From NCBI GenBank assembly GCA_963969595.1, contig OZ018418.1, positions 1,307,001 through 1,371,000 of the forward strand: a DNA stretch of 64,000 nt, in the 5' to 3' direction. A program made the position numbers and the translations under genes. The notes beneath the pieces are model-generated. The model saw only the letters and a list, made by a program, of their open reading frames with translations. It ran no database searches and was not told the DNA's origin. The stretch is from Neckera pumila. Taxonomy: Eukaryota > Streptophyta > Bryopsida > Hypnales > Neckeraceae. Positions 36,539 to 63,778 of this stretch are shown in pieces. Positions within the stretch are counted from its first letter, which is position 1; every line of letters begins with the position of its first letter.

Positions 36539-36856
36539 GCAGGTGTGAAAATACGTAATATCATTTTTTAGAAATCCGGATTAGCTTAGGATCAATTCCG
36601 TAAATATTTTCAAAATTTTGTAGTAGTAAAGCCGGAAACCGGAACATCTAGTAGAAACTAGGTAGTCAGAAAGTTCCGGCTCGTCAATACTTGTAGAATA
36701 GGTAAGAGACAAACTTCGGTCAGAGTCCGTAAACTGGAATGGGATCCAGATTCAGGCAACCTACGAACTAGGGGTCCGACCTACGAAAACTAGGGGTCCA
36801 TTTGCAATGGCAGTGCATTAAGTGACTGAACCAACGGATGTCGGTTGCTGGCCGGG

Positions 36857-36864
36857 TACTTAAG
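36857..36864 (+). promoter_or_regulatory. Conserved TACTTAAG box, TATA-like
   Basis: TACTTAAG preceded by TGTCGGT and GGCCGG recurs at the same place in three LTRs (also 41617 and 61831), in each case about 170-175 bp before the LTR-internal ORF. The position and A/T core suggest a TATA-like element; this is inference. Confidence 0.45.
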
Positions 36865-37031
36865 CGCATGGGTCTTTTGTTTTTTTCCCTCTTTCTTCCG
36901 CTTGAGGAGGTGTGTGCTTGCAGGTTGTGCAGCACGTTTTTAGAAGAGTGAAAGAGTGGAAGAGTGGTGAGTTAGACCGGATAGGGAGAGAAGGAAAGGA
37001 GTGTGCCAATTGCACTAGATTGTAGTTCCGA

Positions 37032-38268
37032 ATGGTGGAAGGAATGTCGGCGCAGGGCCAGAAGACTATTCCCATTGTCAAGCTTTTGTACCCAGTCGTT
37101 CCGATGGACTCCACTGAACGCTTAGAGTTAGAAGAGGATCTCTTCAATATAGGGTATATTGGGTTGATCCGGCACCCCTGGACAGTTAGAAGTGAGGATT
37201 TTCTTTGTGAACTGATCATGGGAGCACCAAATCAGTTTGAAACGACGGCAAGGGATCAGTGGGCCTCTTGGATGGAAAAAATGTGGGCGGAGACTTACGG
37301 GTTCAAACAAACCGGATCCGGAAATGCGACCCGGACAGATAAGTATTTTGACGAGAAGTTTAAGAAACTGCCGCACCACAAGGAGGGTTTCGCCATTAGT
37401 GATTGCATAGACGAGCGCCACAGGTGGTTGTTAGATTTTCTGATTCCTATTGTATATCCAAAAAAGCCGACGAGGGTTATGGTTACGAAGGCGAATATGA
37501 TTTTCGGAGCAATTGAGGGTCGGGTCATGAACTGGGCGACCATAATCCACCAGAAGGTTAAGAAGATGGCGGGGAATATCGAGAAGGCCAAGCAGAGTCC
37601 GCTCAGCACCTACTGGTTCCATATGTACCACCATTTTGATTTTATGACCCCGCAGGAACAAGTAGCCTATGAGACTGGGATGCAGATCCTAAAATACGGA
37701 TTCATGGAAGAGTTGAAGCCACTGGAAGAAACGCCACAAGAGGAAGAAGAAGAAGAAGAAGAAGAAGAAGAAGAGGATCCGGAACCGAAACCGCTGGAGA
37801 AGAAGAAGCGACAAAAGACCACCAATCCGGACGCACAAAGAACGAGTCTAGACGTGCCGAAACCAAATCCGTATCTGATCCAGCCATCACCGGAAACTTT
37901 TGATAAACTCGACTTCTATGAAGCCGGAAACTCGGTTGAAGAAACGGACGGAAATAATGGAGGCCGAGATCACGGATCCGGATGAAGAACTCGAGATTGT
38001 GGAGCCTGAGAAGCAACTGAAACTCCGGAAGTCTGAGAAGCGAAAACCGGAAGGGAAGAAGCCGGTGAGACAACAGATTGAAGACTCCGAATCCGGTGAG
38101 TTCGAGTCAAGATCAGAGTCTGAGGAGGATACGGAGGAGGAGGAGACATCTCCTGCGGCTTGTCAGAATCCGCCCCGAGCCGCCAAGATGACGCCAGCGA
38201 AGAGTTCCGGTAAGCCGGCAGCTAAACAAGGATCCGGGAGTTCAAAGAAATCCTGTGTGGACAAGTAG
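37032..38268 (+). pseudogene. LTR-encoded protein family member, frameshifted tail
   Basis: ATG at 37032 opens a 317-codon frame to a TGA at 37983. Around 37900-37960 the homology moves to another frame (37900-38268), which carries the expected acidic then Ser/Lys-rich tail ending GSSKKS near the stop at 38266. The N-terminal 210 residues are the conserved core also seen in the LTR at 51287-55192 and 45283-48592: VKLLYPVVP, IGLIRHPW, EKMWAETY, GFAISDC, then YPKKPTRVM. A Glu-rich stretch from a GAA microsatellite follows. No known family is certain; the core is reminiscent of the putative plant transposon protein domain of plant retroelements. Function unknown; the frameshift makes full-length translation unlikely. 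Confidence 0.65.
37740..37776 (+). repeat. GAA microsatellite inside the LTR ORF
   Basis: About eleven GAA/GAG triplets in a row, in frame, encoding a poly-Glu run. Length variation here would change the protein without breaking the frame. Confidence 0.9.
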
Positions 38269-39722
38269 TTAGAAGGAAACTACTTGTAAAAGGTGGATTA
38301 GAATGTAGATAGTTTAGTTTCGGAACCGGATTCTAAGCATGGGCCCAGTTCCGAAAATTTAGGGATAAGGACTTTCCGGTTTATTCGGGATTTCCTTGGT
38401 GTGTGTGGTTATCCGGTTTGTGGGAGCCCCTTTTTCACTTTTAGGATGTTGACTTTGGTTTTGTTTTGGGTTTTTAAGGGCGGGCAAGTTAGTTGCCCCT
38501 CATTCCCTCCTAGTTGATATTCAATTGTATTTCATTCCCTTTTCGAAATCTGAGCCCTTGGGTATGCATTTTGGTTTTATCGGTGTATCCGGATTGTGTT
38601 AATCTGTAGTCTGGGTGTTGGAAGGAAAGGACGGGTGAGGAGGAATCCGGATTTTGGGGAATACGGTTTGAGTCGAGAATGTACTATTGTAATGTTGTTG
38701 CACTGTTGACTTAGGAGCTGCGCACAATGTCTTTAAATTACTAAGAGAGTAGTCCGGATCACAGAGTAGCGGGGAAGCAAGTCCGGTTGTCAACCCGTGC
38801 GGTGGTAAGCGCCCGCCTAAGGAAGCCCCCACCTTTCCGGAAGGCCTGCCAACCTCAGAATTCATCTAACATCTAGAAAGATTACACCCCCATATTTGTT
38901 CTGGTCTCTGAGATCTGTTGTTGTAGTAAGGGAGGGTGAAGTATTCCTGAGTGACCTGCTGTCCGAAATCACCATCCGGAAGTTGTGAGGATCCGGATCT
39001 TTCCGTCTTGCTGCAACATCTTGAATACTTGGGTGTTGTTATTTGTGTTTGTTAGAATCATAGGAGAACAAGAGTGGTGAAGTCCCTACCCCCTCAAAAG
39101 ATCAATTAGTGGACCCTCTGAAGGTAAAACAGAGGTATCAAAAACCGGATTGGAAGAAGAGACGTAAACTGGATTCCGGATAGATTAGGTTCCGAGTTTG
39201 CGTTCCGGATTGTGAAAGCATCCGGAAAACCATGAATTGGTGAGAAGAAAGAAAGAAAAAAAAGCCGGATAGCTAGAATATGCTACATACAATCTGGAAA
39301 TTTCCTGGGATGATATTTTGTGTTATCTTAACACATTTTTGTGTTAAGGATACCTACGCCTAGATTGCGCGTATGACAGCAGGTTAGTAGCCAAAGGGGG
39401 TAGTGCTTTCTTGTGTTTTGCCTTTTGTTTTTCCTGCATTGATGAGATTAAACCATCTTGAGGTTTTGTTACTCACAATCATTTTGTGTAGTGCCCAAAC
39501 AGCATTGTTATGTCATTTTATTTGGAGGTTTTTAATATTTGTTTATGGGCATGCAAGCAAGAGGTGTGGCCATGTGTCTATATTTTGTGTATTGCAAATT
39601 GGATAATTGATATTGGTGTGCTCATTAGGCCAAAAAAGGTGTTTACAAGCATTTCACATATATTGTCCAAATCTAAACTTCAGTAATTAGGATATTTGTT
39701 TGTCTGTAATGTTGGGGTTGTT

Positions 39723-41326: not shown

Positions 41327-41616
41327 TGTGGGAGTATGAAATGTCAAAATCCGGAGTTCCAGATTAGTTTAGGAGTAGATTAGTGAGGTTTTTCAAAATT
41401 TTCAAATTCTGACGTAGTAACCCGAAACAGTTACCCAAATCAAGAAATTGGGAAAAATTCGGCCTAGCAAAAACTGTAAAATGGGTAAGGAACGGATCTT
41501 AACGGGATCCGTAATTCGGAAGGTGATCCGGATTCAGGAAACCTATGACCTAGGTTCCGTTTGCGAAAGGCGGCGCATTTATGGGCCATCCCAACGGGTG
41601 TCGGTCGTTGGCCGGC

Positions 41617-41624
41617 TACTTAAG
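41617..41624 (+). promoter_or_regulatory. TACTTAAG box of the 5' LTR
   Basis: Same box and same preceding GTCGGTCG..GGCCGGC as in the solo LTR at 36.5 kb, and also about 175 bp before the ORF's first in-frame ATG (41796). A TATA-like role is inferred from conservation and position. Confidence 0.45.
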
Positions 41625-41795
41625 CCCATTCTTCTCCATTTCTTCTCTTTCTTTCTTCTGCTCAAAGATGTATGTGTTCTTGCAGGTTTGGAGCGCACAT
41701 TAGCTGAGTGAAAGAGTGGTGAGTTAGGATCGGATAGGGAGAGAAGGAGAGGAAGGTGCCGATTGCACCGGGTTAGTAGGATTTTGTCGGCATGG

Positions 41796-42458
41796 ATGGA
41801 GGAATCTTGTGGACCGGCAGTTACGGCCAAGTGGCTCAATCCGGTCATACCTGCGGATCCGAAGGCGCGGATGCTTTTGGAGGGCAATCTGGACAGCATG
41901 GGATGCACGGGGTTGCTGCGCAAGCCTTGGAAATTGAAGGACATTACGACTCAAGTTGCAAGTCAGGCGGGGCCGTCACAAAGGAGGGAGAGGTTAATCG
42001 CGGAGGTTATCAAGAAGGGTCCAAAAGCTCCGGTTGTTCAGGAAACTCCGGTGAAGACAATCCTTGTTACATTCCCCACGCGCACGGCAAGGGTACCAGA
42101 GGGGAACGTAGGATCCAAGGTCATGGTTTCTTCGGTTCAGACGGATTTGACAAGCCGGATGCCTGTGGTGGAGAATCCGGCCCGGACACATCCGGAAGGA
42201 TTCACCCACATGGAGGGAGCATCCAAGGAAGAGGAGGAAGGCAATGACGAGGATCCGATTGGAGCTTCATTGGGGCAACCCATTGAGATGGAGTCGGATA
42301 GGGAGTTAGTCCTATCCAATGACGAGGAAACGGAAGTCACGGCAACTCCGCTGATCCGACGCCCAATTCAGATTCGGGCAAGTGTCCGGAACACCCCCAC
42401 GAAGACAACAGGAGCGACGCAAGGCGGTAGCAGTTCAAAGAAGCCGCAGAAGAAGTAG
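41796..42458 (+). CDS. LTR-encoded protein, core-deleted form (5' LTR copy)
   Basis: The frame is open from 41763; the first in-frame ATG is 41796 (MEESCGPAV), giving about 220 residues. The start (KWLNPVIPADPKARM, GCTGLLRKPW) matches the N-terminus of the 667-residue relative at 51287-55192, and the end (SSSKKPQKK) matches the tail of the 36.5-kb copy, but the roughly 170-residue conserved core between them is missing. The middle is Pro/Thr/Val-rich and acidic (KEEEEGNDEDP). The frame is intact. It is probably not an enzyme; function unknown. The same deletion is in the 3' LTR, as expected since both LTRs are copied from one template. Confidence 0.55.
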   Translation: MEESCGPAVTAKWLNPVIPADPKARMLLEGNLDSMGCTGLLRKPWKLKDITTQVASQAGPSQRRERLIAEVIKKGPKAPVVQETPVKTILVTFPTRTARVPEGNVGSKVMVSSVQTDLTSRMPVVENPARTHPEGFTHMEGASKEEEEGNDEDPIGASLGQPIEMESDRELVLSNDEETEVTATPLIRRPIQIRASVRNTPTKTTGATQGGSSSKKPQKK

Positions 42459-43568
42459 TTAGTTAGGATGTTTTGATTTTGGATTAGGATTTGAACTCTA
42501 GTTCCGGAACGGGTTTTCCGCACTTGGGACCCTGGTTCCGGATTTATTTTTAGAATGAGCCGGCAGTGGATTTTCCGGGTATTTTGGGTGGTTCTCTGAT
42601 TGGCTGCTTGGATTTCTGGGCTGCTTTTTGGCTTTTAGGTGTTGGCTTTTTATGGGTTTTTAAAGGCTGGCAAGCTTGTTGTGCTGGGATTCCCTCCTAG
42701 CAGATTTTCATTTTGTATTCCATTTCTTTCTTTTAATCTAAGTGCTGAGTGAGCTTTCGGATTTCCATCTTTGTGTTCAAGTGTTGGTCTGAATGTTTGT
42801 GACTGTACTAGAGTGTGAGGGAAGACGGGTGAAGAGGAATCCGGGTCTTGGGTAGTCGATTCCATTTGAAAGGTACATTTGAGACAATATTAGATTCTTG
42901 ACTGAGTGAAAGTGCACAATGGTTTTAAACTATCGTAACGATGATCTGATTGATTGAGTAGCGGAAGTGAGTCCGGTTGTCAACCCGTGCGGAGGTAAGC
43001 GCCCGCCCAGAGGAAGTCGCCACTCTCTCAGAAGGTTTGCCAACCTTGGAACGGTCTGGCACTTAACAAACAACCCCCGATAGGTTCCGAAACCCTGTGA
43101 TTTGTCGTTGTAGTAAGGAGTGGATTGAGTCCTGAGTGACCTGCTTTCCGGATCGGGTATCTAAGAAGTTGTGAGGATCCGGATCTTCTTTCCTTGTTGC
43201 AACTCCTTTAAATATTTGGGTGTTTGTTTGTGTTTGTCAAGTTTAGTGAATGTGAGAACCAGAGTGGTGAAGTCCCTACCCCTTGAAAGATCAAAGCGAA
43301 CCCTCTGAGGGTAAAACAGAGGTGAAAGAAGCCATATTGATTTGGAAGTGGAAACCGGATTCCGGGTAGAACCAGATTCGGATTGAACTCCGGATAGTTA
43401 AAAGTTCCGGAAACGAGTGAATAGGTGATTGGATTGAGGAGAAAAGAGAATCCGGAAAACTTGAAATGTGTAGCATCATCTTGGAATTCCTTGGGACAAT
43501 ATTTCATGTTATCTTAGCACATTTTTGTGTTAAAGATACTTACGCCTAGACTGCGCGTACAACACTTT

Positions 43569-43586
43569 TTGTGCCACTGCCAAGGA
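43569..43586 (+). other. Primer-binding site, decayed tRNA-Asp type
   Basis: Four bases after the 5' LTR, TTGTGCCACTGCCAAGGA matches 12 of 18 bases of the tRNA-Asp-type primer site used by many plant Tat/Athila elements (from memory: TGGCGCCGTTGCCGGGGA). Four of the six differences are G-to-A or C-to-T. The assignment rests on that alignment and on position. Confidence 0.6.
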
Positions 43587-43755
43587 TTCTGATCGCGTGT
43601 AGCATATTCTAGATTGAGTTCGATAGGAGTCAGAAGAGTATAACTTGTTCTGGAATTTTAGGACTGAAGGTTCAGTTCAGAAGGAAGTGAGAGGAAAGGG
43701 GTTCTTGCGTCTCTAGCCATGAGAGAATTCGGAAGAAACTGCCAATTGTCACCTC

Positions 43756-45282
43756 ATGAGTAGGTCGTAAAGTCGGAATCAGGGTGGACGACGACCAGAA
43801 CAAGTTGAAGAAGATCCTAAACAAGCTGTGGTCCATGGAATTCCTGCTCCTGAGTTAGACGACAAAATAATGGTTGCACCTGTCTTACGTATCGTGCTGG
43901 AAGGAGAACTGGAACAATCACAAAGTCCAAAAGCAAGAGAGCAACCGGAAGGGGAGAGAGTAGAGCCAGAGAGGCAACTTGATCCAACTTCTTTAGAGGA
44001 AGAACAGACGGAGGACGAAGTAGAAGTCATGAATTCCAGAACTCGTCTCCGATACAATAAGTTCAAGGGTGACGGAAGTAAGGATGTAGATGACTGGATG
44101 GAAGAGTTTGAGGCCACTTCAGTAGCAAACCAGGAGGATCAAGGATCCAAGCAACGTATTTTTCAAGGTTTGCTGAAGAGCGAGGCCTTGAGATGGTACC
44201 AAGATGTTCCGGAAGCTATTCGGAATAATTGGGATCAGCTGAAGGAACTCTTCCTCCAAACATTCAGAGAGGTGGGAGGAGAAGCCCGAGCTCTCGGGAG
44301 GCTAAGTAAAGTTACCATGCGCCCCGAGAAGTCAGTCCGAAAGTATAGGCAGAGGATGAAGGATCTGATCAAGAAACTCACCACGGATGTAGCCGCCAGT
44401 ATACAAGTGGAATGGTATGTGGCAAGATATCTGGAGGAAAGGGCATTCCAGATCCAGCAATCTTGTCCCACCACATTACGGGAAGCCATGGAGTTGGCCC
44501 AGAATTACTAAAACTCAGCTCAGTCGTTGCAGAGATCCATCTAGAAGAGTGCCAAGATGGAGAGAGGACGCAGTAAGAAGTACGAGAAGAAGGAGAGGAG
44601 GAGACGAAAGTTTTTGAAGTCAGAACGTTTGACCTCCGATTCCGGAACAAAATCCTCCCAGACAGAATCATCCAGCTCTGACACAGAATCAGAGGGCTCT
44701 AGCAGCAAACAACATTCACGAGGCAGAGAAGATCGAGGTCGTCGGATCTTAGTGAAGGTGAAGGTGGAAGATGATGCATCCAAAAAATTCATGAAGAATA
44801 TCCAAGAGTCGTTGGAAGCAATCAAAGTCAATTTGGCCGACAATCGGAAGCCGAGACGAATTGTTCTGACCACCCAAACCAACGTCTAGTGTGCAAGGTG
44901 CGGATGACCCGGCCATTATGCCAGCAAGTGTAACCTTGTCCAGCGAAAGCAAGTACACTATGTGGACGAGGAAGGAGTATAGTACACACTACCCGAAGCA
45001 GAAGAATTCGAGGAGCAAATTAATCCGGTTTTCCAGGTCCAGGCTGGATACGGGAGAGGAAGGGTACCTCAGCAACTAACCCGAGCACCTGCAAATCCGT
45101 ATGCAGCCAGGCACAGCCAAGGTAATTTCCCTGCATCAAGGTTTCCATCCGTATGTTGTTTCTTGTATGGTAGCCCCCATCATTATGCAAACAATTGTCC
45201 TCATGGGAGATTAGGGTAGGGTGCACCATTGCCTCTACCTTGTCAAAATTGTGGGCAATACGGACATGATGTTGGTGATTGT
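43756..45282 (+). pseudogene. gag: gag region with three zinc knuckles
   Basis: One frame from an ATG at 43756, broken only by stops (TAA 43768, TAA 44509, TAG 44542, TAG 44887, TGA 44905, TAG 44980, TAG 45217). About 44035-44510 is a Retrotrans_gag domain (FKGDG, DDWMEEF, EALRWYQDV, LFLQTF, LEERAF). A Lys/Glu/Ser-rich linker follows. Three CX2CX4HX4C zinc knuckles come next: 44890-44931 (with the stop inside), 45157-45198 (second Cys replaced by Tyr) and 45241-45282 (perfect). Gag would form the virus-like particle and the knuckles bind element RNA. The third knuckle ends exactly at the duplication ATTGT where the solo LTR entered. Confidence 0.85.
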
Positions 45283-46548
45283 TGTCGCAGCACTGGGCAA
45301 GCAAATTCCCAATTATACTACCAAAAACCACTTCAAAGTATAACAAAGTGACTCTAAAGATCGAACCCGCGAGATTTGGTGAAGTAGATAGCCTTATTTG
45401 GTCTCTAAGCTAAGTCATTACCAATATTTCCTCTTCCGGTCCTAACACAACAACCGGAAACACAACAACACCAAGAACTACAATCAGACCCTCCTTTCTT
45501 TCTCCAATCCGATTGGCTTTCCAATCCGGGCTAATCAGCTCACATCCACTCTTACTACCATCCGATTTAGTTTTACCTCTATTTCACCATCAGAGGGTTC
45601 GCCCCTTGATTTTGAGAGTGGCAGGCCCGCTGCTCCTTCCGTGACTTATAGTGGCTGAAGACCCACTTCTCTATTATCCCATTTCCTACACTAATCCGGA
45701 TCCGGTTTGATCCTCCACAGCAACCTAGAGAACCCTCCAGATCATTGGTCACACAAAAACCCCCCGTACAATCCTCTCATACTACAACGACCTTAGCACC
45801 ATGTTCCGTCTGTATAAAGCCAGGCGGTTGCAAGTGAACCCGTCCGTTCCAACATCAACTAAAGTCCTTCCGTTTACTCACTAAGGCAGTGAGATCTCTC
45901 AGGAGATCGGACACTCAATTGGATTTCCTACCCAAGAGTTCTAGCACGACTAAGGAATCCCTCCTTATCCGCCTAGCCTAATAACGGTTGTCTTGCCCAG
46001 AAACCTAAACCTTAGAGATTCTGAGGAACTGAAATCCACTCTCAACTCTTGCACAACCCGCTCACTTGCACATAAGATCAAAATAAGAACGCCAAAGGGA
46101 GAAATCACACCCGCACAAGCATGCGCCTTCCTAACTCCTCACCACGCAACCCTGCCACATACGGGAGAGACACGCAACAAGAGGCCAAGAGAAGACATAC
46201 ACAAAATTTAGGCAAAAAGACTCCCAGCTCCCAAGCAGGGGCTGACTTATATACAATGTGATTACAAAGCAAAAAGGCCCCCGGAAATCTGCGCTGGACA
46301 TTCGGGTCTGATCCTAACCGGCCGGTCTGGTCCAACATCTGATCCGGTCTTAACTATCTTACAAAACTTTACATTCCTAACTACCTATCTACTCTCCAAC
46401 TCCCCCACCTAGCGTAGGACTCTTGGGTTTCTTGGGCAGTTGGTTGAAGACATCCACAAGGTTCCGGCTCCACTCTCCGGCAGATAGATCCGGAAGATCT
46501 GACCCTGGCAATGAATCCAACTGAATCGGTTGTCCAGGCCCAGGTCTC

Positions 46549-48038: not shown

Positions 48039-48310
48039 GGACACAAGTGGCCATTGAACCCTTACCGATTGCTACCTCACTCTCTCCTAGCCGCACGTCC
48101 CGTTCCCTACTTCCTCTCGCCCGATCTCAACCAGAAATCAACACAAAACCTGCAACCCACATGCTTTCTACCTTTCCTACACACTCTGACATGCCCAGCC
48201 GGAAGCGCACACACATACAATGGCTCTAGCACAGACGGAGGCATAAAAGCGCTCAAGGTCAGCTCCAGTGCTCGAGGGAAGTAAAGGAGTGAAATTGAGG
48301 ACGACCAGCC

Positions 48311-51286: not shown

Positions 51287-54200
51287 TGTCGTAGCACAGA
51301 AAGCACAAAATCCTTCCCTAAGGCCTTAGTGGACCCTAAAGTGACTCGTGTATCCTTCCGCAGAGATCTTGATGTAATTCTCCTAATTGGCCGGAATGAA
51401 GTGAGTTGATATCCCAAAACAAACCCCAGTACTAGTCTAGACCGGTTCCACCTCCAGTAATCCGGAACTGGAAACTCCTTTCCCATGTATATATCTATCC
51501 GGTCTAGAGTATTTAACTATATAATAAATTCGAGTTTAACCTCTGGACCAAGAGGGATTTGCAACTTGGGCTTCAGGAAGGACGCTTAACTCCTACCCTC
51601 CGAGTTTTAACGTGTCAGAAGATCCACGGTATAAACTTCAAAAGAAAATCTTGACAAAAACGATGAGAAAAAGACTTTCCTCACAACTAGACCGGATTGA
51701 CTACTCAGGCTAGCAGGTCATGCAAGACAGTCTGGATTCTCCTAACAATTACTACGACGACAGACCACAAGACAATCCACGGCCTAGGTAGAGAAGGGGC
51801 GTCAGGAAAACACAGGAGAGCTATGATACTTCTTGACAAAAGTAGCTTCTTGACAAAAGCAAGTTCTAATCCTCGCAAGGAAATCCTGTGGTATCCTATC
51901 TAACACACAATCTCTCTAGGGACCGGATACTTCCTGTATCCGGGTATCACTTCCTCCTTACCCACTCTGCACGATCTCACTGCTCTCACAATAACACGGA
52001 CAAGTGCTAAAAGGTACAGCTCACGGTTTGTGAATTGAATAACTTCAATGGCATTTGCAGAAAAACTAGGAATACAAAGTATGAAAATGCTACCCGGATT
52101 CAACCTAAAATCCGCCTTCAAATACTAAACTGCCCTTCAAACTCAAAAAGCGCCTAAGGCCCAAAACAGCAAGAGGAATGACACGTTTCATTCCTAACTT
52201 CCTGCCAATTTTAGGCAACCTAAGCTACAATCAAAAAGTTTCCACTTAATGTGGATCTTAGATCCTAAAAATCCGGACTCAACTACTTGAGTCCTAATTC
52301 CTTTTACTAAAAATATTCCAAGTCAACTACTTGTCAAAAATCTAAGCATGCAGCCCTACAATCACTGCCATAATCTTCACCTACTTTCTAGTCTTCTTAA
52401 CTGGAGAAAACCCCGCCTTTGCTGGTACCTTCCGGGCCACGGGCTTCTTTCCGGTCTGTTGTCTCGCCATCTGCTTAGACCGGACTTTGGCCTTCTCTCT
52501 GGCTGCCTTTGCCTTTGTTGCTCAGGTCTCTGCCAGAGCCTGATCGGGATCTGAATATGGTTCAGAATCCTCATCGAACTCTGATTCCTCTTCCTCATCA
52601 TCGGAATCCTCTTTGTCTTCTTCCTCTTCCTGAGCCCTGATGAATTTCTTCTTAGCCGACGGTGGCTCAGGAACCTTTCTCTTCTGCGGGACTGGAACAG
52701 GTCTGGCCACCTTGCTCTGAGGTGTTGCCTCTCCTCCAACCGGTTTCCTGATCACACCTTTACTGGGTGATCTTGATGAAGTCCCGCGACCGGCTCCAAC
52801 CTCCGTCTTCACCACGGACTGCATCAAGGCCGTCATCTTCTCGGTCTCGCCGAACTGCACCTTCTTCCCCGGAGTCTTGGGAGAAGACTTGGAGGGGGAG
52901 AGACTGCTGATATTCTTCGTCTTGGTTCCCTCCTTTGGTGTAGATCCTCTTGGTCTGGTTTCCGGTCCCTGTGCCTTGGCTGGATCCGGTGCCGTCACCT
53001 TTTTAATCTCCAAGTCGTCATCCTCCGGAATTGGGTCGGATACCTTGGTGCTTTCCACCTCGGTTTGCTGCTTCTGACTCGTCTTGGTTTCCTGGTGCTC
53101 CTCAGGTACAGGTAAAGCAGGTTGTTCGTGAGAAGTCTCACCTTTACCCGTGTCTTCTGCTGTCGACTGCTGAACTGGCTCTTGATCCGGTTCCGGTCTC
53201 GGCGTAGGCACACTATGAGGATTCACCTCACGCATTACTTCTCGCAGCTGCTCCAATGTCGACTCCATCTTCTTATGGTAAGTGATCATCGCCAATAGGA
53301 GCTTTTGGTGCAACTGTCTTCCCTCCGTCATCACTTGTTGGTCAAACAAGTTAGCCTTGTTGACCACTTCACCCGGATGGGTGATAAATTCCTGGATTCG
53401 GGAAAGGGTATCCTTCGTCTGTTTGGAGAACATCCTCTCCAACTCCACCTCTTCCGTTTTCTGGCGCAACTCTTGTTTAAGAGCAGCCACTTGGCCGGAA
53501 AGCTTCACCAATTCCTCCTTATTCTCATTCTTCTCCTTCTCCCGGTTGAGCCGGATCACCCGAGTCAAGGCTTGTGCTGGGTGGTCAACGCCCACCGTTT
53601 GGCAGATGGCCTGCATTGCACCTTGTACCACTGCGTATCGTTTCCTGAAATCACTCAGATCTCTGGTGATCCTGTCCAAAGGCTCTTCCCCCCAGACCGG
53701 ATCGGTATCCTTGGTCTGTTCTCTCTCTACCGGATCCTTTCCTCTCGTTTCCTCACCCTTGTCCTCCGCTTCACTCTTATCCTCCTCTTCATCAAACTCA
53801 TCCTCATTGTCCTCATCGGAGGACTCTTCCTCATTTTCGGTCTCCTGATCTAAGTCAGGGACCTCAAATTCTACTAATGCCGCGGCTGCCTCATACTCTA
53901 CCTCTTCCTCTTTTGTCATCACCTCCTCCGAATTATACAGGTGATAAAGGAACGGACAAATGGCGGAAGGCTTAGCCTTCCCGACATTGTTGACCATTTT
54001 CAACACTTGGTCCTGAATTACTAAATCCCAATCTACCTTTCGGTCTCTTGACAGCGCGCCAAAGACTGTGTTGGCGAGTGTCAGAGAGACCCGGCTTGGC
54101 CTTTCCAGGTTAAGAATGGCCAAAACGTATTGCAGTAAACGCCTCTCTCTCTCATTGACACAATCGGTAACCGCGAACCCATCCTTCTTGCTAATGGGGG

Positions 54201-55192
54201 TATGAAACTTACCCACCGTGAATTGGTCCTTCCGAGATGCGTTGCCTTCGCCCTCCCGGTCAAACCGGTACACCTTTCTCCACATCTCCGCCGTCCACTT
54301 CTTAGGTTTTGCACGGATCGTGGTCGCGGCCTGAGATGGTGCTCCCGAACTCAACTCCGCCACTATTGCTTCACTCCGGAAATCCCACGGTCTGATCAGG
54401 AAGCCGGCGCATCCCATTTGTTCCAAGTCCTCCTTCAGATCCGCCATCTCCTTGTCATCCTTGGGCAATCGCGGCGTCACGTAGCGCAGCGAGATGGTCG
54501 CTCCTCCGCTGTGACTTGCGGCCATATCTCCCGTCGATCAAAGAGAACCGGTCTACTGTTGGGTATTGGTACAACTAGTGATCCTCACGGCTCACCTCCT
54601 CTCTCTCCTTTCAGATGGAAGGTATTAACTCTAAGCTCTGGCACCAACAACCTTCTCTCTCTCTCAATAACCTTCCAGCACTCTCGCCTGCAGTCGCGTC
54701 AACTCAACACACCAATACTACCTCTCAGACCAGAAATCAGTAATCGCATATGCTGTATAATTCTCCGTCAGGGCAGGAAATCACAAGTGACCAACCTTTG
54801 GACAGATAGGATCTAAAAGAGCCAATCTCAGCAGCCCTTAGTAATTACCCTAATTAAGGCCTTGCCCATTAATCCTGCCCGTTTAGGATTCCCGTTAACT
54901 AATGATTAGAACGTGTCCCTTGTTCCCTAGGGCTAAGTAGGTCACCGTTGGATGGCGGTGTCCTGTTTTCCCTTTCCTGACCTGGTCTAAGCAAAGTATA
55001 GTTCCGGTTCCTCGTTTCCGGTATATTCAATTAGCCTTTACTCTAATTCCTGATCAGTCCATTCCCGGTTTCCGGTTCTAAACATTAGACGGTCTACAAC
55101 TATCTAAAAATAAAAAAAATTAACTACTAAGAAGAATATTATTCCTTAATTTATATTTTAATATAGTAAAACTAGATTTTCATGTTCCGACA
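51287..55192 (-). mobile_element. Solo LTR (3.9 kb), minus orientation, TSD GTTCC
   Basis: Plus-strand ends are TGTCGTAGCAC and TGTTCCGACA; GTTCC lies at 51282-51286 and 55193-55197. Removing it and one duplication copy restores the RNase H reading frame exactly. The plus-strand TGTCG(T/C)AGCAC end matches that of the solo LTR at 45283. It carries the longest intact ORF in the window. It is larger than the other LTRs, largely because its ORF is complete. Confidence 0.92.
52522..54525 (-). CDS. Intact 667-aa LTR-encoded protein
   Basis: ATG at 54525, stop at 52522. Residues 1-220 are the family core: ISLRYVTPRLP, GCAGFLIRPW, AEMWRKVYRF, GFAVTDCVNERE, a VSLTLANTVFG segment, DWDLVIQDQVLKM, CPFLYHLY. 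About 223-290 is Asp/Glu-rich. About 300-420 is a Lys/Glu/Leu coiled coil (QVAALKQELRQK). About 420-600 is Pro/Ser/Lys/Thr-rich and disordered (TPGKKVQFGE). The C-terminus is acidic (DSDDEEEESEFDED). No catalytic motif, zinc finger, signal peptide or membrane helix. The core recalls the putative plant transposon protein domain, a tentative link. It is the only long undamaged ORF of the nested stack, so the insertion is young or the ORF is under selection. Alternative: a captured host gene. Confidence 0.8.
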   Translation of the reverse strand: MAASHSGGATISLRYVTPRLPKDDKEMADLKEDLEQMGCAGFLIRPWDFRSEAIVAELSSGAPSQAATTIRAKPKKWTAEMWRKVYRFDREGEGNASRKDQFTVGKFHTPISKKDGFAVTDCVNERERRLLQYVLAILNLERPSRVSLTLANTVFGALSRDRKVDWDLVIQDQVLKMVNNVGKAKPSAICPFLYHLYNSEEVMTKEEEVEYEAAAALVEFEVPDLDQETENEEESSDEDNEDEFDEEEDKSEAEDKGEETRGKDPVEREQTKDTDPVWGEEPLDRITRDLSDFRKRYAVVQGAMQAICQTVGVDHPAQALTRVIRLNREKEKNENKEELVKLSGQVAALKQELRQKTEEVELERMFSKQTKDTLSRIQEFITHPGEVVNKANLFDQQVMTEGRQLHQKLLLAMITYHKKMESTLEQLREVMREVNPHSVPTPRPEPDQEPVQQSTAEDTGKGETSHEQPALPVPEEHQETKTSQKQQTEVESTKVSDPIPEDDDLEIKKVTAPDPAKAQGPETRPRGSTPKEGTKTKNISSLSPSKSSPKTPGKKVQFGETEKMTALMQSVVKTEVGAGRGTSSRSPSKGVIRKPVGGEATPQSKVARPVPVPQKRKVPEPPSAKKKFIRAQEEEEDKEDSDDEEEESEFDEDSEPYSDPDQALAET

Positions 55193-55197
55193 GTTCC

Positions 55198-56836
55198 ACA
55201 CCAATCATGAGTCATTCAAGTACTTGGTTAACAAGCCCGACCAATCCGGACGGATTGCTAGGTGGGTATTATTACTTCAGGAGTTCAACTACAAAGTGAT
55301 GGTCAAATTCGGAAAGACCAATGGGAATGCGGATTTTTTATCAAGATATCGCGAAAAAAAAGGATTGGAGGACATTTCTGTCAAGTTTCCAGATGAGTTT
55401 CCGGATGATAAGGAAGTACCGGTGTTCCACCTCGACGGAGAACACCAATCAGACTTTCAGAATATCATTGACTTCCTTACGGAACAACGATATCCAAAAG
55501 GTCTGAATCGGGAAGAGAAAGGTATCTTCCATCAGAAGGTAGCTCCCTATTCCTTGATTAAGGGAATCCTATTCAAAATGGGAGCAGACGATCGGCTTAG
55601 GAGATGTTTGGAAACTAAGGATCGAAACAAAGTTATGAGGGCTTTGCATTCCGGGTCTTCCGAAGGCCATTTTGCTTCCATCACGACAGTCAACAAGATC
55701 CGCACAATCGGATACTGGTGGCCGTATTTGATCCGTGATGTCAAGGCGTATGTGGAGGGTTGTGACCGATGTCAGCAGACAGGAGCGCCTTCCTTCCGGA
55801 ATCATTGGCCACTAACTCCTATCATCCCACTTGCACCATTTGAGAAATGGGGGATAGACTTTATCAGTCCCATTGCTCCGCTGAGTGCCAAGAAGAGAAG
55901 GTATATCATCCTAGCCACGGATTATGCTACCAAATGGGTAGAAGCACGTGCCACCCGAAACTGTTCCGCCAAGACGGTTGCTTCTTTCCTGTTTACGGAA
56001 ATCATGATGAGATTTGGTCATCCACTCGAACTCGTCAGTGACAGAGGATTACATTTCCTCAATGACCTGGTCCAAGATATCACCTCAAAAGACCTCATCA
56101 AGCACCGGAAGACGACTCCATATAATCCCAGGGTGAACGGATTGACGGAACAGGCTAATGGTATTATCGAGAGGTCCCTGAACAAGATGGTTTCCAAACA
56201 CAAGACGGATTGGATCTGAAGCTTCCCTCAGCTCTTCATGCGTACAACACATCTGACAAGAACATGACCGGAAGAAGCCCTTACTTCTTAGTGTTTGAAC
56301 AGGAAGCTGTTCAAGGAATCGAATTGGACATAGAAACACACTGGGTCATGAGCACCCAAAACGCAGTGCGAACGAGTGATCCGGAAATCCGACTTTCAGC
56401 AATCAAAGATCTGGAGGAAGCTAGACTCATAGCTTTGGACCACACCAAGGAAGTGCAAGAGAGAAGAAAGGCGGATCATGACAAGAAACTTCCGACGAAA
56501 CACGGAATCAAGGTGGGCGGACTCGTACCTCTATACGATAGCCGCTACAGAATCTTTTTGAGTAAGCTACACACCAGATGAATGGGGCCCTATAGAGTCA
56601 AGCAAATTTTCAAAAACGGGTCCATGCAGTTGGAGGATCTTTGGGGTGTACGGTTTGATGCCAAGGTCAATAAGTCCCGGGTCAAGAAATACAAACTGAA
56701 TCCAGAATCAAATGATATAGATAGTGTCAACAGGGTTGACAAGACGCTACGTCCTAAGCAAAATTACGCCCATTTTTGGGACGTCCAGACGTTGCGTCCG
56801 CCGTCGAATAATTTTAACAGGCGGACGGCTTACTGA
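55198..56836 (+). pseudogene. RNase H end, integrase and C-terminal domain
   Basis: The frame resumes at 55198 with HTNHESFKYL, where the RNase H metal-binding Asp of TDH is Asn, another G-to-A-type change. The integrase follows: zinc-binding HHCC (HSGSSEGH about 55646-55670, then CDRC near 55762), the DD35E core with WGIDF, SDRGLHF and TEQANG (35 residues between second Asp and Glu by count), and after a frameshift near 56210 an open frame to 56581, then GPYRVKQIF (GPY/F-type domain) to the TGA at 56834. Integrase would insert element DNA. The frameshift and TGA 56579 break it here. The last 30 residues before 56836 look composition-driven and may already be fold-back DNA. Confidence 0.85.
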
Positions 56837-57499
56837 AGTGGACGATGGTATACAGTCACCCTGTCCGCCCCGACCGACGCCCCATCCGCCGAGCCGTCCG
56901 CTGGTGTATATTTTAAAATATACCATTGAAAGTGTATTGTCAAGAGCTTTCCAGTGGTATATTATGCGTCCAATTTGGCCAAAAACTCCAACGGCGGGAT
57001 TCTTCCAAAGATTGGGGTCCGCTAAGCCGTCCGCCAATTTGTAGTCCGCCCAGCCGTCCGCCAATTTGTAGTCCGCCCAGCCGTCCGCCTATGTGCTCGT
57101 CCGTCCGTTGTTATGTGCTTCATAATACACCATTGGAAAGGTAATGTCAAGAGCTTTCCAATGGTATATTATGCGTCTGATTAGGCCAAAAACTCCAACG
57201 GTGGGATCCTTCCAAAAATTAGGGTCCTCCAAGCCGTCCACCAATTTGTAGTCCGCCCATCTGTCCGACTAGCCGTCCGCCTGTGTGCCCGTCCGTCCGC
57301 TATTATGTGCTTTATAATACACCATTAGAAAGGTATTGTCAAGAGCTTTCCAACGGCATATTCTGTGTCCGATTTGGCCAAAAACTCCGACAGTGGGACC
57401 CTTTCAAATATTGGAGTCTGCTAGCCGTCTGCCAGCCGTCCACCCCGTCCGCTCAACGACTACTTGCTTGTCCACTTAGCTATCCGCTTCAACTAAAAC

Positions 57500-58480
57500 A
57501 TTGAATTCTAAAAAGCATATATTTGCTTCCAAAGATTGCTATTCAATGCTACAAGAATCCAATGCAACATTAACCCCTAAAGAACCAAGGTGTTTTTCCT
57601 TTAAAAAACCACTCAACATTGTCATTTCTATTGCAAAGAAAAAAGAGCTTTTAAAGTTGTTTTTCTTGCATATTCAATCATAAGATCTTATACTTAACTA
57701 CTATATGAACATGTAGAAGAAATTTCAGAAACTTTCACCATATAGATTGCAAGATATATGCATTTAAAGTGAAGAATACAAGTTTTTTGCTCCTTGCTTG
57801 ACTAGATTTTTTGGCTTTGAATCTTTTTAGTTCAAATTTTTGCACTATAGACTTTTATTTTTTATTTTTTTATATTAAGCAGTTGAGTCAGGAATCTCTT
57901 AAATAAATTCAAGATAAAAAGCATTTAATTTTCACTCATTAAAAAATTGTTAAGTAGAAATGGGTTCAAGATTGATGAAATAACTAAATTGTTAATAGCT
58001 TTTTGATGGAATTGAATCACAATAATCCCAACGGTGAGATTGTTCTAGCAAGAAAATCTAACCTTGTCTAATAATTTTTTGTGAAAAATTCTAAAAATTG
58101 CATTGAAAAACAAATTCTATAGGTTATTTTTTCAAAAAGATGCTTAAATTGCCCAAGAAACTAAGATTGTCCATAACTTTCTCATTACTAGTCCAAATTG
58201 AATGAAACAAAGCTTCACATTTAGCCAAAAATATAATCTTTGAGAAAAAATTTGAAAAAAACTTAGTTTGACTTTCTGTGATTTTTTTTGTGCTGCCCGC
58301 CGAACTCCAATTTTGCTTATTGTGCCATAACTTTTGCTTCCAGGCATCAATTAAATTAAAAAATATATATTCACAAAGCTCTCGCAAAAATACACAACTT
58401 CAAAAAATTCCAAAAAAATATTATTAAAATTGAGATAGTAAGGGGACAAATGGTCCTTTAGGGTTAATGTATGCAAGAAA
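57500..58480. repeat. AT-rich segment related to 16740-17990
   Basis: AATCATA(A/G)GATCT, then CATATAGATTGCAAGATATATG near 57740, as at about 16865-16960. The two places also share a style of long A/T runs and a TTAGGGGTTAA/TTTAGGGTTAA end. Non-coding. Confidence 0.5.
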
Positions 58481-58489
58481 GGGTCCTTG

Positions 58490-59248
58490 AATTTATTTTT
58501 CAACAAATTAAAACCTACACAAAATAGTGAAACTAGGTTGCCTTGTTAATTAGGTTGCCTTATCTAAGATAATTTACCTCATTGATCAATGCTTGTTCCA
58601 TATGGAGGTGCATGCCACTCTCAGAACTAAATCTTAAACTGGTGCACAAATCTATGCCATATACATGGCTTTAAATTGAATGCATCATTGCACAAAAGTT
58701 GTGAATATTTCTATAGTGTAAATTGTCAAGAAATTGGTATGAGACTACCGAATTTCACTATTTTGTGTACAATCTAAATCCTATACCTTAAACTCTATAC
58801 CCTAAACCCTATATCCTAAATCCAAAATTTTGAATCTTACAATAGTGACCAAAAACATTGGCGCAATGTGCTAAATATGTTTGACCTTCAATCCTTTTTA
58901 AATGTCATTATCAAAATATACTACATATAAACCTCACAAACTTATTCATTTATGTTTTCAATGTGGTCCTTGTTTTCTTTATCAATTATTATGTGCCAAT
59001 GTATAATGTGGAACATGCAACTATAACTTCAAGTATTCCCTTAAGTTTTATTGTAAAATACATTGATAGTTTGAAACACCAAAGTATACATAGTATAAGC
59101 AATTGTATTAACTTATTATTCTATTAGAAGATGCTACTAAAATGCTTTAAGCACTTCAATGAAATTTAATGTACATAGTTTAATGTAGCTCAAGAATAAA
59201 TATTGCATTCACATGACAAAAAAATAATTAATGTTATTTTCCTATATC

Positions 59249-59283
<35 letters not shown>

Positions 59284-60600
59284 CATCTTAATTCACAAAC
59301 CATCAACAATGTATCCCATACCAAAAATATTGGTGCTTCGATAGTCAAGAAGGTGATTGATCTCAAATATGATGACTCCTCATATACGACAGTTATGGAC
59401 CTCATTTATGTACTTCTACATTATAAATGATATCATTAATTCATATTGTTGTAATTTGCAAATGCAAAAGTGTGAAACGTGCAATCCTGATTTGAAGAGG
59501 ATTTCAACTTAGGCCTTAGGGTGCATGCCAAATTCAAGGGATTAGTATTATTATATTACAACTATACAAGCAAGTTTATAATTTTCTTAGATGGTGCTAT
59601 ATTGGAGAAATGAATAATCACCCATGTCCACGTGAGCTCGTTAATCTTTTCAAGACCAAACATGTATATTATGTAATATTCATTGATTTTTCAAAACAAT
59701 TGCGTTTTAGAGCTTCAAAGGGAAATATGGATTTCATTGGAGTAAATCAATAGATTTTCATTGAACAAAGAAAAATGCTTGCATGCTTGTGATCTAAATA
59801 TGATGGCATTGAATATCAATGAAATAAATAATTAATATTTAGAATATATTATTATAGTGAATCTTATGAATCTATTCAAAGTTCTGGATAGGACATTAGA
59901 TTTGTAATAAGGACTCTTAGAAATATTAGGTGATTCTTGGTTCTAAACTAGTTTACAACTTTTTGGATTGTGAATCATTCTAAGAATCAAGGGTGGGTAT
60001 GCCGGCCATATATTACCCACCACAATAAAGGACTCACTCTACCTTAGGCAATGAATATGCATTGTGGATTTTTTCAAAATTTTACTGAATATGTTTTAAC
60101 ATGTATTAATGTCATCACACCTAATTTTACACAATATCACTTTGTAGTATAGATATCTTGAAACTAGCAATTGTACTTTAATGATTACAACTAGAAATAA
60201 TCACAAAAAATAGTTTTATTAACTTCACAAAAAAATTTCAATACTACTATAAATATCAACTAAATATGACCAAAGGCATTAATATAAAGAGAATTTTAAA
60301 TGTATGCCACAAATTTATAATCTAAGAAATGTAGTAACGATAAGAAATTGTGCACATACAAATCATTTTATAGAAAGTTACATAATCAATCTACAATTTT
60401 GGAGATTACAATATTGATTGAATTGAAAGAAGGAAAACTATATGGTTAGACTCTTAGTAATATTTATTAATCAAGCATACTAAGATTTTAATAATACAAT
60501 TGCAAGCAAGCCACTTGTGTTTTTTGAATAATGACCAGTTCAATCTTTTTAGGTGAAGATAAGAACTCCAAGAGTGTTGAAGATTACAAGAATTAGAATA
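58490..60600. other. AT-rich interior of the fold-back structure, no gene
   Basis: No coding frame recognised. It includes a CCCTAAA-like degenerate stretch near 58780-58830 and the AT microsatellite at 59251. Confidence 0.4.
59251..59281. repeat. (AT)n microsatellite
   Basis: About 15 AT dinucleotides in an uninterrupted run. The short frames reading YIYIYI through it on both strands are artefacts. Confidence 0.95.
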
Positions 60601-61507
60601 ATGGCTAGCACCCAAACTTTGGAGTGGTCCCCTTGCTGAAGTTTTTGTCCAAATTAGACGTATGATATACCATTGGAAAGCTCTCAATGATATCTTTCTA
60701 TTGGTATATTATGAAGCATACAATAACAGATAGACGGCTAGGCAGATAGGTAGATAGGTGGACGGCTTAGTGGACCCCAATCTTTGAAAGGGTTCCACAA
60801 CCGGAGTTAGTGGCCAAATTGAACGCATAATATACTATTGGAAAGCTCTTGACAATACCTTTTCAATGGTATATTATAAAGCACATAACAGCGGACGGAC
60901 GAGCACATAGGCGGACGGCTAGTCGGACGGATGGGCGGACTACAAACTAGCGAAAGGATGGGTGGAACCCAATCTTTGGAAGAATTCCACCGTTGGAGTT
61001 TTTGGCCAAATCGGACGCATAATATACCATTGGAAAGCTCTTGATAATACCTTTCCAATGGTATATTATAAAGCACATAAAAACGGATGGACGAGCACAC
61101 AGGCAGACGGCTAGTCAGATGGCTGGGCGGACTACAAATTGGCGGACGGCTTGGCAAACCCCAATCTTTGGAAGGATCCCACCGTTGGAGTTTTTGGCCA
61201 AATCAGACGCATAATATACCATTTTAAAGCTCTTGACAATTCCTTTCCAATGGTATATTATAAGATATACATTAGTGGACGGATGGCGAACGAGCCGTCG
61301 GTCGGGTCAATTGGGGTGGCGGACGGGGCGCCAATCGGGGGCAGATTACTAGGACTAACGAGCCGGGTGGCCGCTGGTGATGCACAAAATTTATCATTCA
61401 CTCTATAAATGTAAAGTTTAGATGTCATGGGACGTCCGAGGAGTAGCGGACGTTGGACGTCCGGACAGCCCTGGATAGTGATGATGTTTGCAGGGACTCT
61501 CACATTT

Positions 61508-61517
61508 GAAAAAGGGG
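61508..61517 (+). other. Polypurine tract of the Gypsy element
   Basis: GAAAAAGGGG ends three bases before the TGTGGGAG start of the 3' LTR, the expected place for the plus-strand primer of reverse transcription. Confidence 0.8.
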
Positions 61518-61830
61518 TCATGTGGGAGTACAAAATGTCAAAATCCGGAATTCCAGATTAGTGTAGGAGTAGATTAGTGAGGTTTTTTCAAAATTTTCAA
61601 ATACTAACGTAGTAATCCGGAACAGTTAGCCAAATCAGGAAACTGGGAAAAATTCGGCCTAGCAATATCTGTAAAATGGATAAGGAACGGATCTTAATGA
61701 GATCCGTAATCCGGAAGGTGATCCGGATTCAGAAACCTACGACCTAGGTTCCGACCTAGGAACTAGGGTTCCGTTTGCAAAAGGCGGCGCATTTATGGGC
61801 CATCCCAACAGGTGTCGGTCGCTAGCTGGC

Positions 61831-61838
61831 TACTTAAG
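61831..61838 (+). promoter_or_regulatory. TACTTAAG box of the 3' LTR
   Basis: Same box as at 41617. The preceding GGCCGGC has become AGCTGGC here, while the box is unchanged. Confidence 0.45.
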
Positions 61839-62009
61839 CCCATTCTTCTCCATTTCTTCTCTCTCTTTCTTCTGCTCAAAGATGCATGTGTTCTTGCAGG
61901 TTTGGAGCGCACATTAGCTGAGTGAAAGAGTGGTGAGTTAGGATCGGATAGGGAGAGAAGGAGAGGAAGGTGCCGATTGCACCGGGTTAGTAGGATTTTG
62001 TCGGCGTGG

Positions 62010-62672
62010 ATGGAGGAATCTTGTGGACCGGCAGTTACGGCCAAGTGGCTCAATCCGGTCATACTTGCGAATCCGAAGGCGCGGATGCTTTTGGAGGGCA
62101 ATCTGGACAGCATGGGATGCACGGGGTTGCTGCGCAAGCCTTGGAAATTGAAGGACATTACGACTCAAGTTGCAAGTCAGGCGGGGCCGTCACAAAGGAG
62201 GGAGAGGTTAACCGCGGAGGTTATCAAGAAGGGTCCGAAAGCTCCGATTGTTCAGGAAACTCCGGTGAAGACAATCCTTGTTACATTCCCCACGCGCACG
62301 GCAAGGGTACCAGAGGGGAACGTAGGATCCAAGGTCATGGTTTCTTCGGTTCAGATGGATTTGACAAGCCGGATGCCTGTGGTGGAGAATCCGGCCTGGA
62401 CACATCCGGAAGGATTCACCCACATGGAGGGAGCATCCAAGGAAGAGGAGGAAGGCAATGACGAGGATCCGGTTGGAGCTTCATTGGAGCAACCCATTGA
62501 GATGGAGTCGGATAGGGAGTTAGTCCTATCCAATGACGAGGAAACAGAAGTCACGGCAACTCCACTGATCCGACGCCCAATTCAGATTCGGGCAAGTGTC
62601 CGGAACACCCCCACGAAGACGACAGGAGCGACGCAAGGCGGCAGCAGTTCAAAGAAGCCGCAGAAGAAGTAG
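62010..62672 (+). CDS. LTR-encoded protein, core-deleted form (3' LTR copy)
   Basis: Counterpart of 41796-42458, frame intact, first in-frame ATG at 62010. Eight residues differ from the 5' copy by eye (for example Pro-Ala-Asp to Leu-Ala-Asn near residue 15, Gly to Glu near 175). It has the same start motifs (GCTGLLRKPW), the same missing core and the same SSSKKPQKK end. Both copies staying open over about 2% divergence is mildly suggestive of constraint but may be chance at this age. Confidence 0.55.
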   Translation: MEESCGPAVTAKWLNPVILANPKARMLLEGNLDSMGCTGLLRKPWKLKDITTQVASQAGPSQRRERLTAEVIKKGPKAPIVQETPVKTILVTFPTRTARVPEGNVGSKVMVSSVQMDLTSRMPVVENPAWTHPEGFTHMEGASKEEEEGNDEDPVGASLEQPIEMESDRELVLSNDEETEVTATPLIRRPIQIRASVRNTPTKTTGATQGGSSSKKPQKK

Positions 62673-63778
62673 TTAGTTAGGATGTTTTGATTTTGGATTA
62701 GGATTTGAACTCTAGTTCCAGAACGGGTTTTCCGCACTTGGGACCCTGGTTCCGGATTTATTTTTAGAATGAGCCGGCAGTGGATTTTCCGGGTATTTTG
62801 GGTGGTTCTCTGATTGGCTGCTTGGATTTCTGGGCTGCTTTTTGGCTTTTAGGTGTTGGCTTTTTATGGGTTTTTAAAGGCTGGCAAGCTTGTTGTGCTG
62901 GGATTCCCTCCTAGCAGATTTTCATTTTGTATTCCATTTCTTTCTTTTAATCTAAGTGCTGAGTGAGCTTTTGGATTTCCATCTTTGTGTTCAAGTGTTG
63001 GTCTGAATGTTTGTGATTGTACTAGAGTGTGAGGGAAGACGGGTGAAGAGGAATCCGGGTCTTGGGTAGTCGGTTCCATTTGAAAGGTACATTTGAGACA
63101 GTATTAGATTCTTGACTGAGTGAAAGTGCACAGTGCTTTTAAACTATCGTAACAATGATCCGATTGATTGAGTAGCGGAAGTGAGTCCGGTTGTCAACCC
63201 GTGCGGAGGTAAGCGCCCGCCCAAAGGAAGTCGCCACTCTCTCAGAAGGTTTGCCAACCTTGGAACGGTCTGGCACTTAACAAACAACCCCCGATAGGTT
63301 CCGAAACCCTGTGATTTGTCGTTGTAGTAAGGAGTGGATTGAGTCCTAAGTGACCTGCTTTCCGGATCGGGTATCTAAGAAGTTGTGAGGATCCGGATCT
63401 TCTTTCCTTGTTGCAACTCCTTTAAATATTTGGGTGTTTGTTTGTGTTTGTCAAGTTTAGTGAATGTGAGAACCAGAGTGGTGAAGTCCCTACCCCTTGA
63501 AAGATCAAAGCGAACCCTCTGAGGGTAAAACAGAGGTGAAAGAAGCCATATTGATTTGGAAGTGGAAACCGGATTCCGGGTCGAACCAGATTCGGATTGA
63601 ACTCCGGATAGTTAAAAGTTCCGGAAACGAGTAAATAGGTGATTGGATTGAGGAGAAAAGAGAATCCGGAAAACTTGAAATGTGTAGCATCATCTTGGAA
63701 TTCCCTGGGACAATATTTTGTGTTATCTTAGCAAATTTTTGTGTTAAAGATACTTACGCGTAGACTGCGCGTACAAGA

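What the first reader, a model, noticed from the sequence alone, without database searches (positions are those of the whole stretch)
36544..63778. Five LTRs carry an ORF of one protein family inside the LTR
The solo LTRs at 36544-39378, 45283-48592 and 51287-55192 and both LTRs of the 22-kb element each hold a relative of one protein, in the sense orientation of the LTR. Shared markers in order are a P(V/R)xP start, G(C/Y)xGxxxxPW, MW/RWxxxY, xxDC, and a basic/acidic tail. Plant LTRs normally encode nothing, so an ORF kept inside LTRs of different length and sequence suggests a functional or selfishly retained gene duplicated by every transposition cycle.
Basis: partly seen in the sequence, partly recalled or inferred. 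Interest (0 to 1): 0.88.

Follow-up and report, generated by a model that had tools for sequence, protein, structure and literature searches.

The report
Protein gene carried inside retrotransposon LTRs
Four kinds of retrotransposon end-repeats (LTRs) in this window each contain a copy, now damaged, of the same otherwise unknown protein gene, an arrangement best known from a mouse retrovirus and unusual because such repeats normally carry only control signals.

Summary
All five LTRs are real, with perfect 5-bp target duplications at the four insertion sites. Each carries a sense ORF of one protein family. Hundreds of relatives exist elsewhere (790 at E<=0.01, 120 listed). The 140 relatives fetched match the window only inside the five LTRs. 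The 22-kb element's two copies are internally deleted; all copies are damaged. Codon positions show past purifying selection among LTRs i, iii and iv (third-position identity 24-41%, first/second 50-64%), though dS is mostly saturated. In two sister LTR families the ORF sits between alignable LTR flanks, so it is an ancestral part of the LTR. Outside the window, the two most similar protein pairs of the set appear to share a contig, as expected of paired LTRs. No convincing Pfam family or fold match was found. Closest known design: MMTV sag, mostly inside the LTR; plant additional ORFs are described as internal. Most likely an LTR-resident accessory gene acting in trans; a nuclear role is inferred, not shown. 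Host species, U3-or-R position and genome-wide LTR location could not be settled.

The parts
36544..39378 (+). solo LTR i, 2835 bp, target duplication GCAGG
   Evidence: both flanks of its ORF align to the 22-kb element's LTRs at 65-69%
37032..37985 (+). LTR-internal ORF i (317 aa): whole N-terminal domain, tail cut by a frame change
   Evidence: profile E 1.6e-95
37986..38268 (+). rest of the ORF i tail in another frame, ending GSGSSKKSCVDK
41327..63778 (+). 22-kb Ty3/gypsy-type element, target duplication GTAGT; gag 43771-44511 (PF03732), integrase 55176-56219 (PF17921, PF00665)
41327..43564 (+). 5' LTR of the 22-kb element
41793..42458 (+). internally deleted LTR ORF (221 codons with the stop not counted as residue)
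   Evidence: profile E 2e-07
61521..63778 (+). 3' LTR of the 22-kb element
62007..62672 (+). internally deleted LTR ORF, second copy
   Evidence: profile E 2.1e-06
61508..61517 (+). polypurine tract GAAAAAGGGG just before the 3' LTR
   Evidence: read
45283..48592 (-). solo LTR iii, 3310 bp, target duplication ATTGT, nested downstream of gag in the 22-kb element
46611..47993 (-). LTR-internal ORF iii, decayed (frame changes and stops); P0002 match 36.6% over 475 columns, a match that runs across stops
51287..55192 (-). solo LTR iv, 3906 bp, target duplication GTTCC (+ strand), nested upstream of integrase; the ORF starting at its far side begins with the end of an RNase H domain
52522..54525 (-). 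LTR-internal ORF iv, 667 aa: helical N-terminal domain (about 13-218), acidic linker, long helices/coiled coil (about 280-433), charged tail
52381..52521 (-). same frame beyond the stop of ORF iv: 46 residues ending SPVKKTRK, resembling the SPSKGSSSKRRR-type end of relatives
43107..43308 (+). words shared between LTR families downstream of the ORF (GTTGTAGTA, TGACCTGCT, GTTGTGAGG, ACCCTCTGA), shown for the 5' LTR
46247..46253 (-). TATATAA downstream of ORF iii (possible second promoter; consensus match only)
48312..48318 (-). TATATAA about 320 nt upstream of ORF iii (possible promoter; consensus match only)

Best explanation
These are LTRs of several related Ty3/gypsy-type retrotransposon families that carry, as an old and fixed part of the LTR, an accessory protein gene of about 560-700 residues. 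Shown here: the gene lies between the LTR's 5' end and the LTR tail, in the sense direction, in four LTR families; it evolved under purifying selection; relatives are abundant elsewhere. Inferred: it is transcribed from promoter sequences in the LTR's first 300 or so bases (whether the ORF falls in U3 or in a long R is open), and its product (helical domain, coiled coil for self-association, acidic and basic segments, basic end) acts in trans, probably in the nucleus, on expression, RNA handling or silencing of the elements that carry it. Each transposition makes two copies, and recombination to a solo LTR keeps the gene while losing gag-pol.
For: Target duplications and LTR ends. Hits only within LTRs in the window, for 140 of 140 fetched proteins. 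In the sister families i and 22-kb, LTR flanks align on both sides of the ORF (A5 1-453 with i 1-482, A5 1087-2238 with i 1677-2835), so the ORF was part of their common ancestor's LTR. Codon-position pattern among i, iii and iv. 790 relatives; 14 of 140 fetched are 685-700 aa and 14 of 140 keep the SKGS end. N-terminal domain most conserved (43% to ORF iv against 20-23% for the other regions, 40 relatives). The two most similar protein pairs of the set share a contig length (99.0%, 97.9%; 2 of 2 pairs at >=97%, expected 0.005, shuffle p 0.0002). Tail words of i and the 22-kb LTR recur in iii or iv at similar distance from the LTR end: 10, against a mean of 0.20 and a maximum of 5 in 500 shuffles of iii and iv. 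Predicted helices and long helical stretch.
Against: No copy in the window is intact, so present function is not shown. The 22-kb element moved with an internally deleted ORF. In the comparisons of ORF iv with the deleted copies (58 and 68 codons) first positions are hardly better kept than third (0.43 and 0.41 against 0.38 and 0.37). No expression data. dS saturated in most comparisons. 14 of 17 same-contig pairs are below 92% identical, i.e. not close, and contig identity rests on equal length; a local duplication would look the same. LTRs iii and iv share no more tail words with each other than chance (10 against a mean of 8.2, 181 of 500 shuffles as high). TATA-like sites are consensus matches, and LTR iv has none clear shortly upstream of its ORF. 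Nuclear or regulatory action rests on domain layout alone.
Confidence: 0.6

Rival explanations
1. The ORF lies in a long R region and is a leader ORF, the first ORF of the genomic RNA ahead of gag, rather than a U3 gene like MMTV sag. (This is about position and mostly compatible with the best explanation.)
For: TATA-like or CTTAAG sites 277-316 bases into the LTR, upstream of the ORF, in i, 22-kb and iii. In rice Retrosat2, with LTRs over 3.2 kb, R is reported as 2023 bp starting at nucleotide 244 (PMC3485330, passage), a very similar layout. I raised this rival's odds from 0.25 after seeing that passage.
Against: Further TATA-like sites downstream of the ORF in iii and the 22-kb LTR allow a start after the ORF.
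Confidence: 0.45
2. The ORF is a former internal 3' accessory gene that was swallowed by the LTR when the polypurine tract moved upstream of it, and does the same unknown job as internal plant additional ORFs. (This is about origin and compatible with the best explanation.)
For: Additional ORFs between pol and the 3' LTR are frequent in plants (PMC7264820, parts 1-2 of 3 read). The 22-kb element has its polypurine tract directly before the LTR and no ORF of 150 aa or more between 56219 and the 3' LTR.
Against: No match to Pfam families seen for such ORFs (PF03078, named; pfam04195, named), nor among the 25 of 44 families shown.
Confidence: 0.3
3. A passenger: a gene captured once into an LTR and carried along without benefit.
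For: All window copies are damaged; one family lost most of the gene.
Against: Third-position excess of change among i, iii and iv, hundreds of relatives, region-specific conservation.
Confidence: 0.07
4. The three solo LTRs are a different kind of mobile element with TG...CA ends that encodes this protein, not LTRs.
For: Only one of the four families has a two-LTR element in the window.
Against: LTR i aligns with the 22-kb LTRs on both sides of the ORF; iii and iv share 5-bp duplications and positioned tail words with i and the 22-kb LTR.
Confidence: 0.05

Closest known systems
MMTV sag, superantigen gene in the betaretroviral LTR (PMC4667437, passages seen)
   Same: Accessory gene mostly inside the LTR, in sense; most ancient copies found as solo LTRs (490 of 527 contigs there); past purifying selection; LTR conserved because it codes.
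   Different: Retrovirus of mammals; superantigen; sag is in U3, here U3 or R is open; no sequence relation tested directly.
Additional ORFs of plant LTR retrotransposons: Grande gene23, RIRE2, Retand, env-like (PMC7264820, parts 1-2 of 3 read)
   Same: Extra conserved ORF of unknown function; some products are nuclear.
   Different: Those are in the internal region, mostly between pol and the 3' LTR; here the gene is in the LTR and so doubled.
Retrosat2 / RIRE3 / RIRE8 (PMC3485330, passages seen)
   Same: LTRs of about 3 kb or more, an unknown extra ORF0 that evolves faster than ORF1, a promoter about 240 bases into the LTR and a very long R.
   Different: ORF0 is reported upstream of gag-pol, not inside the LTR.
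Tekay 5' additional ORF of sunflower (PMC11728184, passages seen)
   Same: Extra protein with helices, disorder and a nuclear localisation signal, present in 500 of 523 group-2-like elements.
   Different: Reported as a 5' ORF of the element, not within the LTR; sequence relation not tested.

Membership tests
LTR retrotransposon LTR | TG...CA ends with short target duplication | tested here: met
   5-bp duplications at four of four insertion sites; four of five LTRs TG...CA, one ending GA
LTR retrotransposon LTR | direct repeats flanking gag-pol | tested here: met
   22-kb element only; not testable here for solo LTRs i, iii and iv
Ty3/gypsy element | order protease-RT-RNase H-integrase with gypsy-type domains | tested here: inconclusive
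   gag PF03732 and integrase domains after an RNase H end; the protease- and RT-like frames (recognised by eye) gave no such Pfam hit
sag-like LTR gene (works like) | sense ORF inside the LTR, kept by selection | tested here: met
sag-like LTR gene (works like) | ORF in U3, with its own transcript | not testable with these tools
   no RNA data; R may begin before the ORF
MMTV Sag protein family | sequence homology to Sag | tested here: inconclusive
   no direct comparison; Pfam scans gave only scattered hits
Plant additional ORFs | position in the internal region between the LTRs | tested here: not met
   all five window copies are inside LTRs
Retrotransposon gag | match to gag/capsid profiles | tested here: not met
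   the element's gag matches PF03732, ORFs i, iv and 22-kb do not

The most novel reading that the evidence does not exclude
A lineage of Ty3/gypsy-type retrotransposons turned its LTR into a self-contained gene cassette whose product acts in trans on the conserved words in the LTR tail, so that every solo LTR remains a helper gene for the family: a sag-like solution reached independently outside retroviruses, with a protein fold not seen before.
Probability: 0.25. Interest if true: 0.87.

Novelty: new variant of a known kind. Interest (0 to 1): 0.72.

Why it matters
LTRs are normally treated as non-coding control DNA and are masked in annotation. A gene fixed inside LTRs is doubled by each transposition and outlives the element as a solo LTR, which changes how such a gene evolves and can be lost. 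It also gives a way to align LTRs of distant families by protein, and a concrete protein to test for control of transposon silencing or expression.

Full report
What was checked. I re-read the LTR ends from sequence and confirmed them by script: LTR i 36544-39378, the 22-kb element's LTRs 41327-43564 and 61521-63778, LTR iii 45283-48592 (minus strand), LTR iv 51287-55192 (minus strand). All four insertion sites have perfect 5-bp duplications. The 22-kb LTRs are 96.5% identical. The element has a gag domain and, after the end of an RNase H domain, integrase zinc-binding and core domains, and a polypurine tract directly before the 3' LTR. Its protease- and RT-like frames were recognised by eye only (one search gave no such hit). 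LTRs iii and iv are inserted inside the 22-kb element in the opposite direction.

The protein family. ORF iv has 667 residues. A search found 19 relatives, a profile search 21, and a profile centred on the N-terminal domain 790 at E<=0.01, of which 120 were listed. I used the 140 listed proteins of these three searches. tblastn of the 140 hits only the five LTRs: 140 proteins hit iii, 140 iv, 138 i, 100 the 5' and 55 the 3' LTR of the 22-kb element; none hits elsewhere in the 64 kb. A profile of the N-terminal domain finds the same loci and no other at E<=10 among 1577 stop-to-stop pieces. The copy in the 22-kb element is internally deleted: it aligns over 37-76 columns near the N-terminus and, at DNA level, over the end of the ORF.

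State of the copies. ORF iv has an in-frame stop, after which the frame runs on for 46 residues to an end (SPVKKTRK) like that of relatives (SPSKGSSSKRRR; 14 of 140 relatives keep the SKGS end; the JGI subfamily ends differently). ORF i has a frame break in its tail. ORF iii has frame changes and stops. These are decayed copies of a transposon gene, not a maintained host gene.

The ORF belongs to the LTR. LTR i and the 22-kb LTRs are related: their first ~480 and last ~1150 bases align at 65-69% identity, and the ORF lies between these flanks in both. LTRs iii and iv do not align with them in general, but of 118 nine-base words shared by the tails of i and the 22-kb LTR, 14 recur in iii or iv (mean 1.97, maximum 10 in 500 shuffles of iii and iv), 10 of them within 60 bases of the same distance to the LTR end (mean 0.20, maximum 5). 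Some are CCGGAT variants frequent in this sequence. LTRs iii and iv do not share more words with each other than chance. The positioned words give LTR orientation for iii and iv and agree with the ORF being in sense.

Selection. Identity by codon position is 0.51/0.63/0.26 (iv-i), 0.57/0.62/0.33 (iv-iii) and 0.56/0.64/0.41 (i-iii); pS 0.66-0.92, pN 0.40-0.43. dN/dS could be computed for three comparisons (0.37 for i-iii, 0.33 and 0.38 for iv with the two deleted copies) and should be read as 'below 1' only. The iv-iii count pools three pieces, two of which overlap by five residues. Comparisons with the deleted copies are short and mixed: iv with them 0.43/0.62/0.38 and 0.41/0.59/0.37; i with them 0.65/0.68/0.24 and 0.62/0.65/0.24. 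The two LTR copies of the 22-kb element differ by 8 nonsynonymous and 5 synonymous changes (dN 0.016, dS 0.032), compatible with drift after insertion. Among 40 relatives of 555 residues or more, the N-terminal domain is the most conserved part (72% mean pairwise and 43% to ORF iv, against 55-60% and 20-23% for the other regions).

Are relatives elsewhere in LTRs? No flanking DNA could be fetched, and the source genome was never reachable. An indirect test: proteins with equal contig length were taken to share a contig. Of 17 same-contig pairs, two are 99.0% and 97.9% identical, and these are the two most similar pairs in the set; 2 of 2 pairs at >=97% share a contig (expected 0.005, p 0.0002), 2 of 14 at >=95%, 3 of 89 at >=92% (expected 0.16) and 3 of 221 at >=90% (expected 0.39). 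The other 14 same-contig pairs are not close (one has no usable alignment). So the test supports paired copies in a few cases only; clustering at 90% hides most young pairs.

Structure. AlphaFold2 gives a helical N-terminal domain (helices between residues 23 and 219; pTM 0.73 alone), long helices at 280-433 and disordered charged segments. No credible match to solved or viral structures and no convincing Pfam family.

Mechanism. Shown: an old, selected, LTR-resident gene in sense. Inferred: transcription from a promoter upstream of the ORF (TATATAA in iii about 320 nt upstream; CTTAAG box in i and the 22-kb LTRs). Whether this is also the start of genomic RNA is open. If so, the ORF lies in a long R and is the first ORF of the RNA; rice Retrosat2 has such a layout, with R of 2023 bp starting at nucleotide 244 (PMC3485330, passage). 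If genomic RNA starts at the TATA-like sites downstream of the ORF, the ORF lies in U3 as in MMTV sag. Inferred: the product self-associates and works in trans, plausibly in the nucleus; the transposition of the internally deleted 22-kb family fits a product that is not needed in cis.

Comparison. In MMTV most of sag lies in U3 of the LTR, LTRs being ordinarily non-coding, and most ancient sag copies were solo LTRs (PMC4667437, passages). [quoted passage not shown] My literature searches (listings only, with passages checked) showed no plant retrotransposon with a described gene inside the LTR. The architecture is thus known in kind from retroviruses, but appears new for this group of elements and this protein family: 'new variant of a known kind'.

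Limits. Host species unknown; no expression data; only one two-LTR element in the window, and its copies of the gene are the deleted ones.

Noticed in passing
43565-43594: No TGG-type tRNA primer site follows the 5' LTR of the 22-kb element; the stretch has only an 8-nt reverse match in the LTR. Priming may be unusual.
   Followed up: partly
42979-43008 and 38789-38818: GTCAACCCGTGCGGxGGTAAGCGCCCGCC, conserved in the tails of LTR i and the 22-kb LTRs, looks like a splice donor (GGTAAGC) downstream of the ORF (read by eye).
   Followed up: no
39723-40397 (-): RNase H domain (PF00075) in an ORF of 224 residues between LTR i and the 22-kb element, possibly a LINE remnant.
   Followed up: partly
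56869-57434 and 60601-61345: Tandem repeats of about 192 bp, in opposite orientation near both ends of the AT-rich stretch between integrase and 3' LTR of the 22-kb element; inverted copies 84-88% identical.
   Followed up: no
3773-4408 (-): Protein kinase domain fragment (PF00069).
   Followed up: no
10835-12211 and 14092-15522: Open frames of 169-274 residues without a Pfam match above cut-off (one weak coiled-coil hit); no hit to the LTR protein family.
   Followed up: partly
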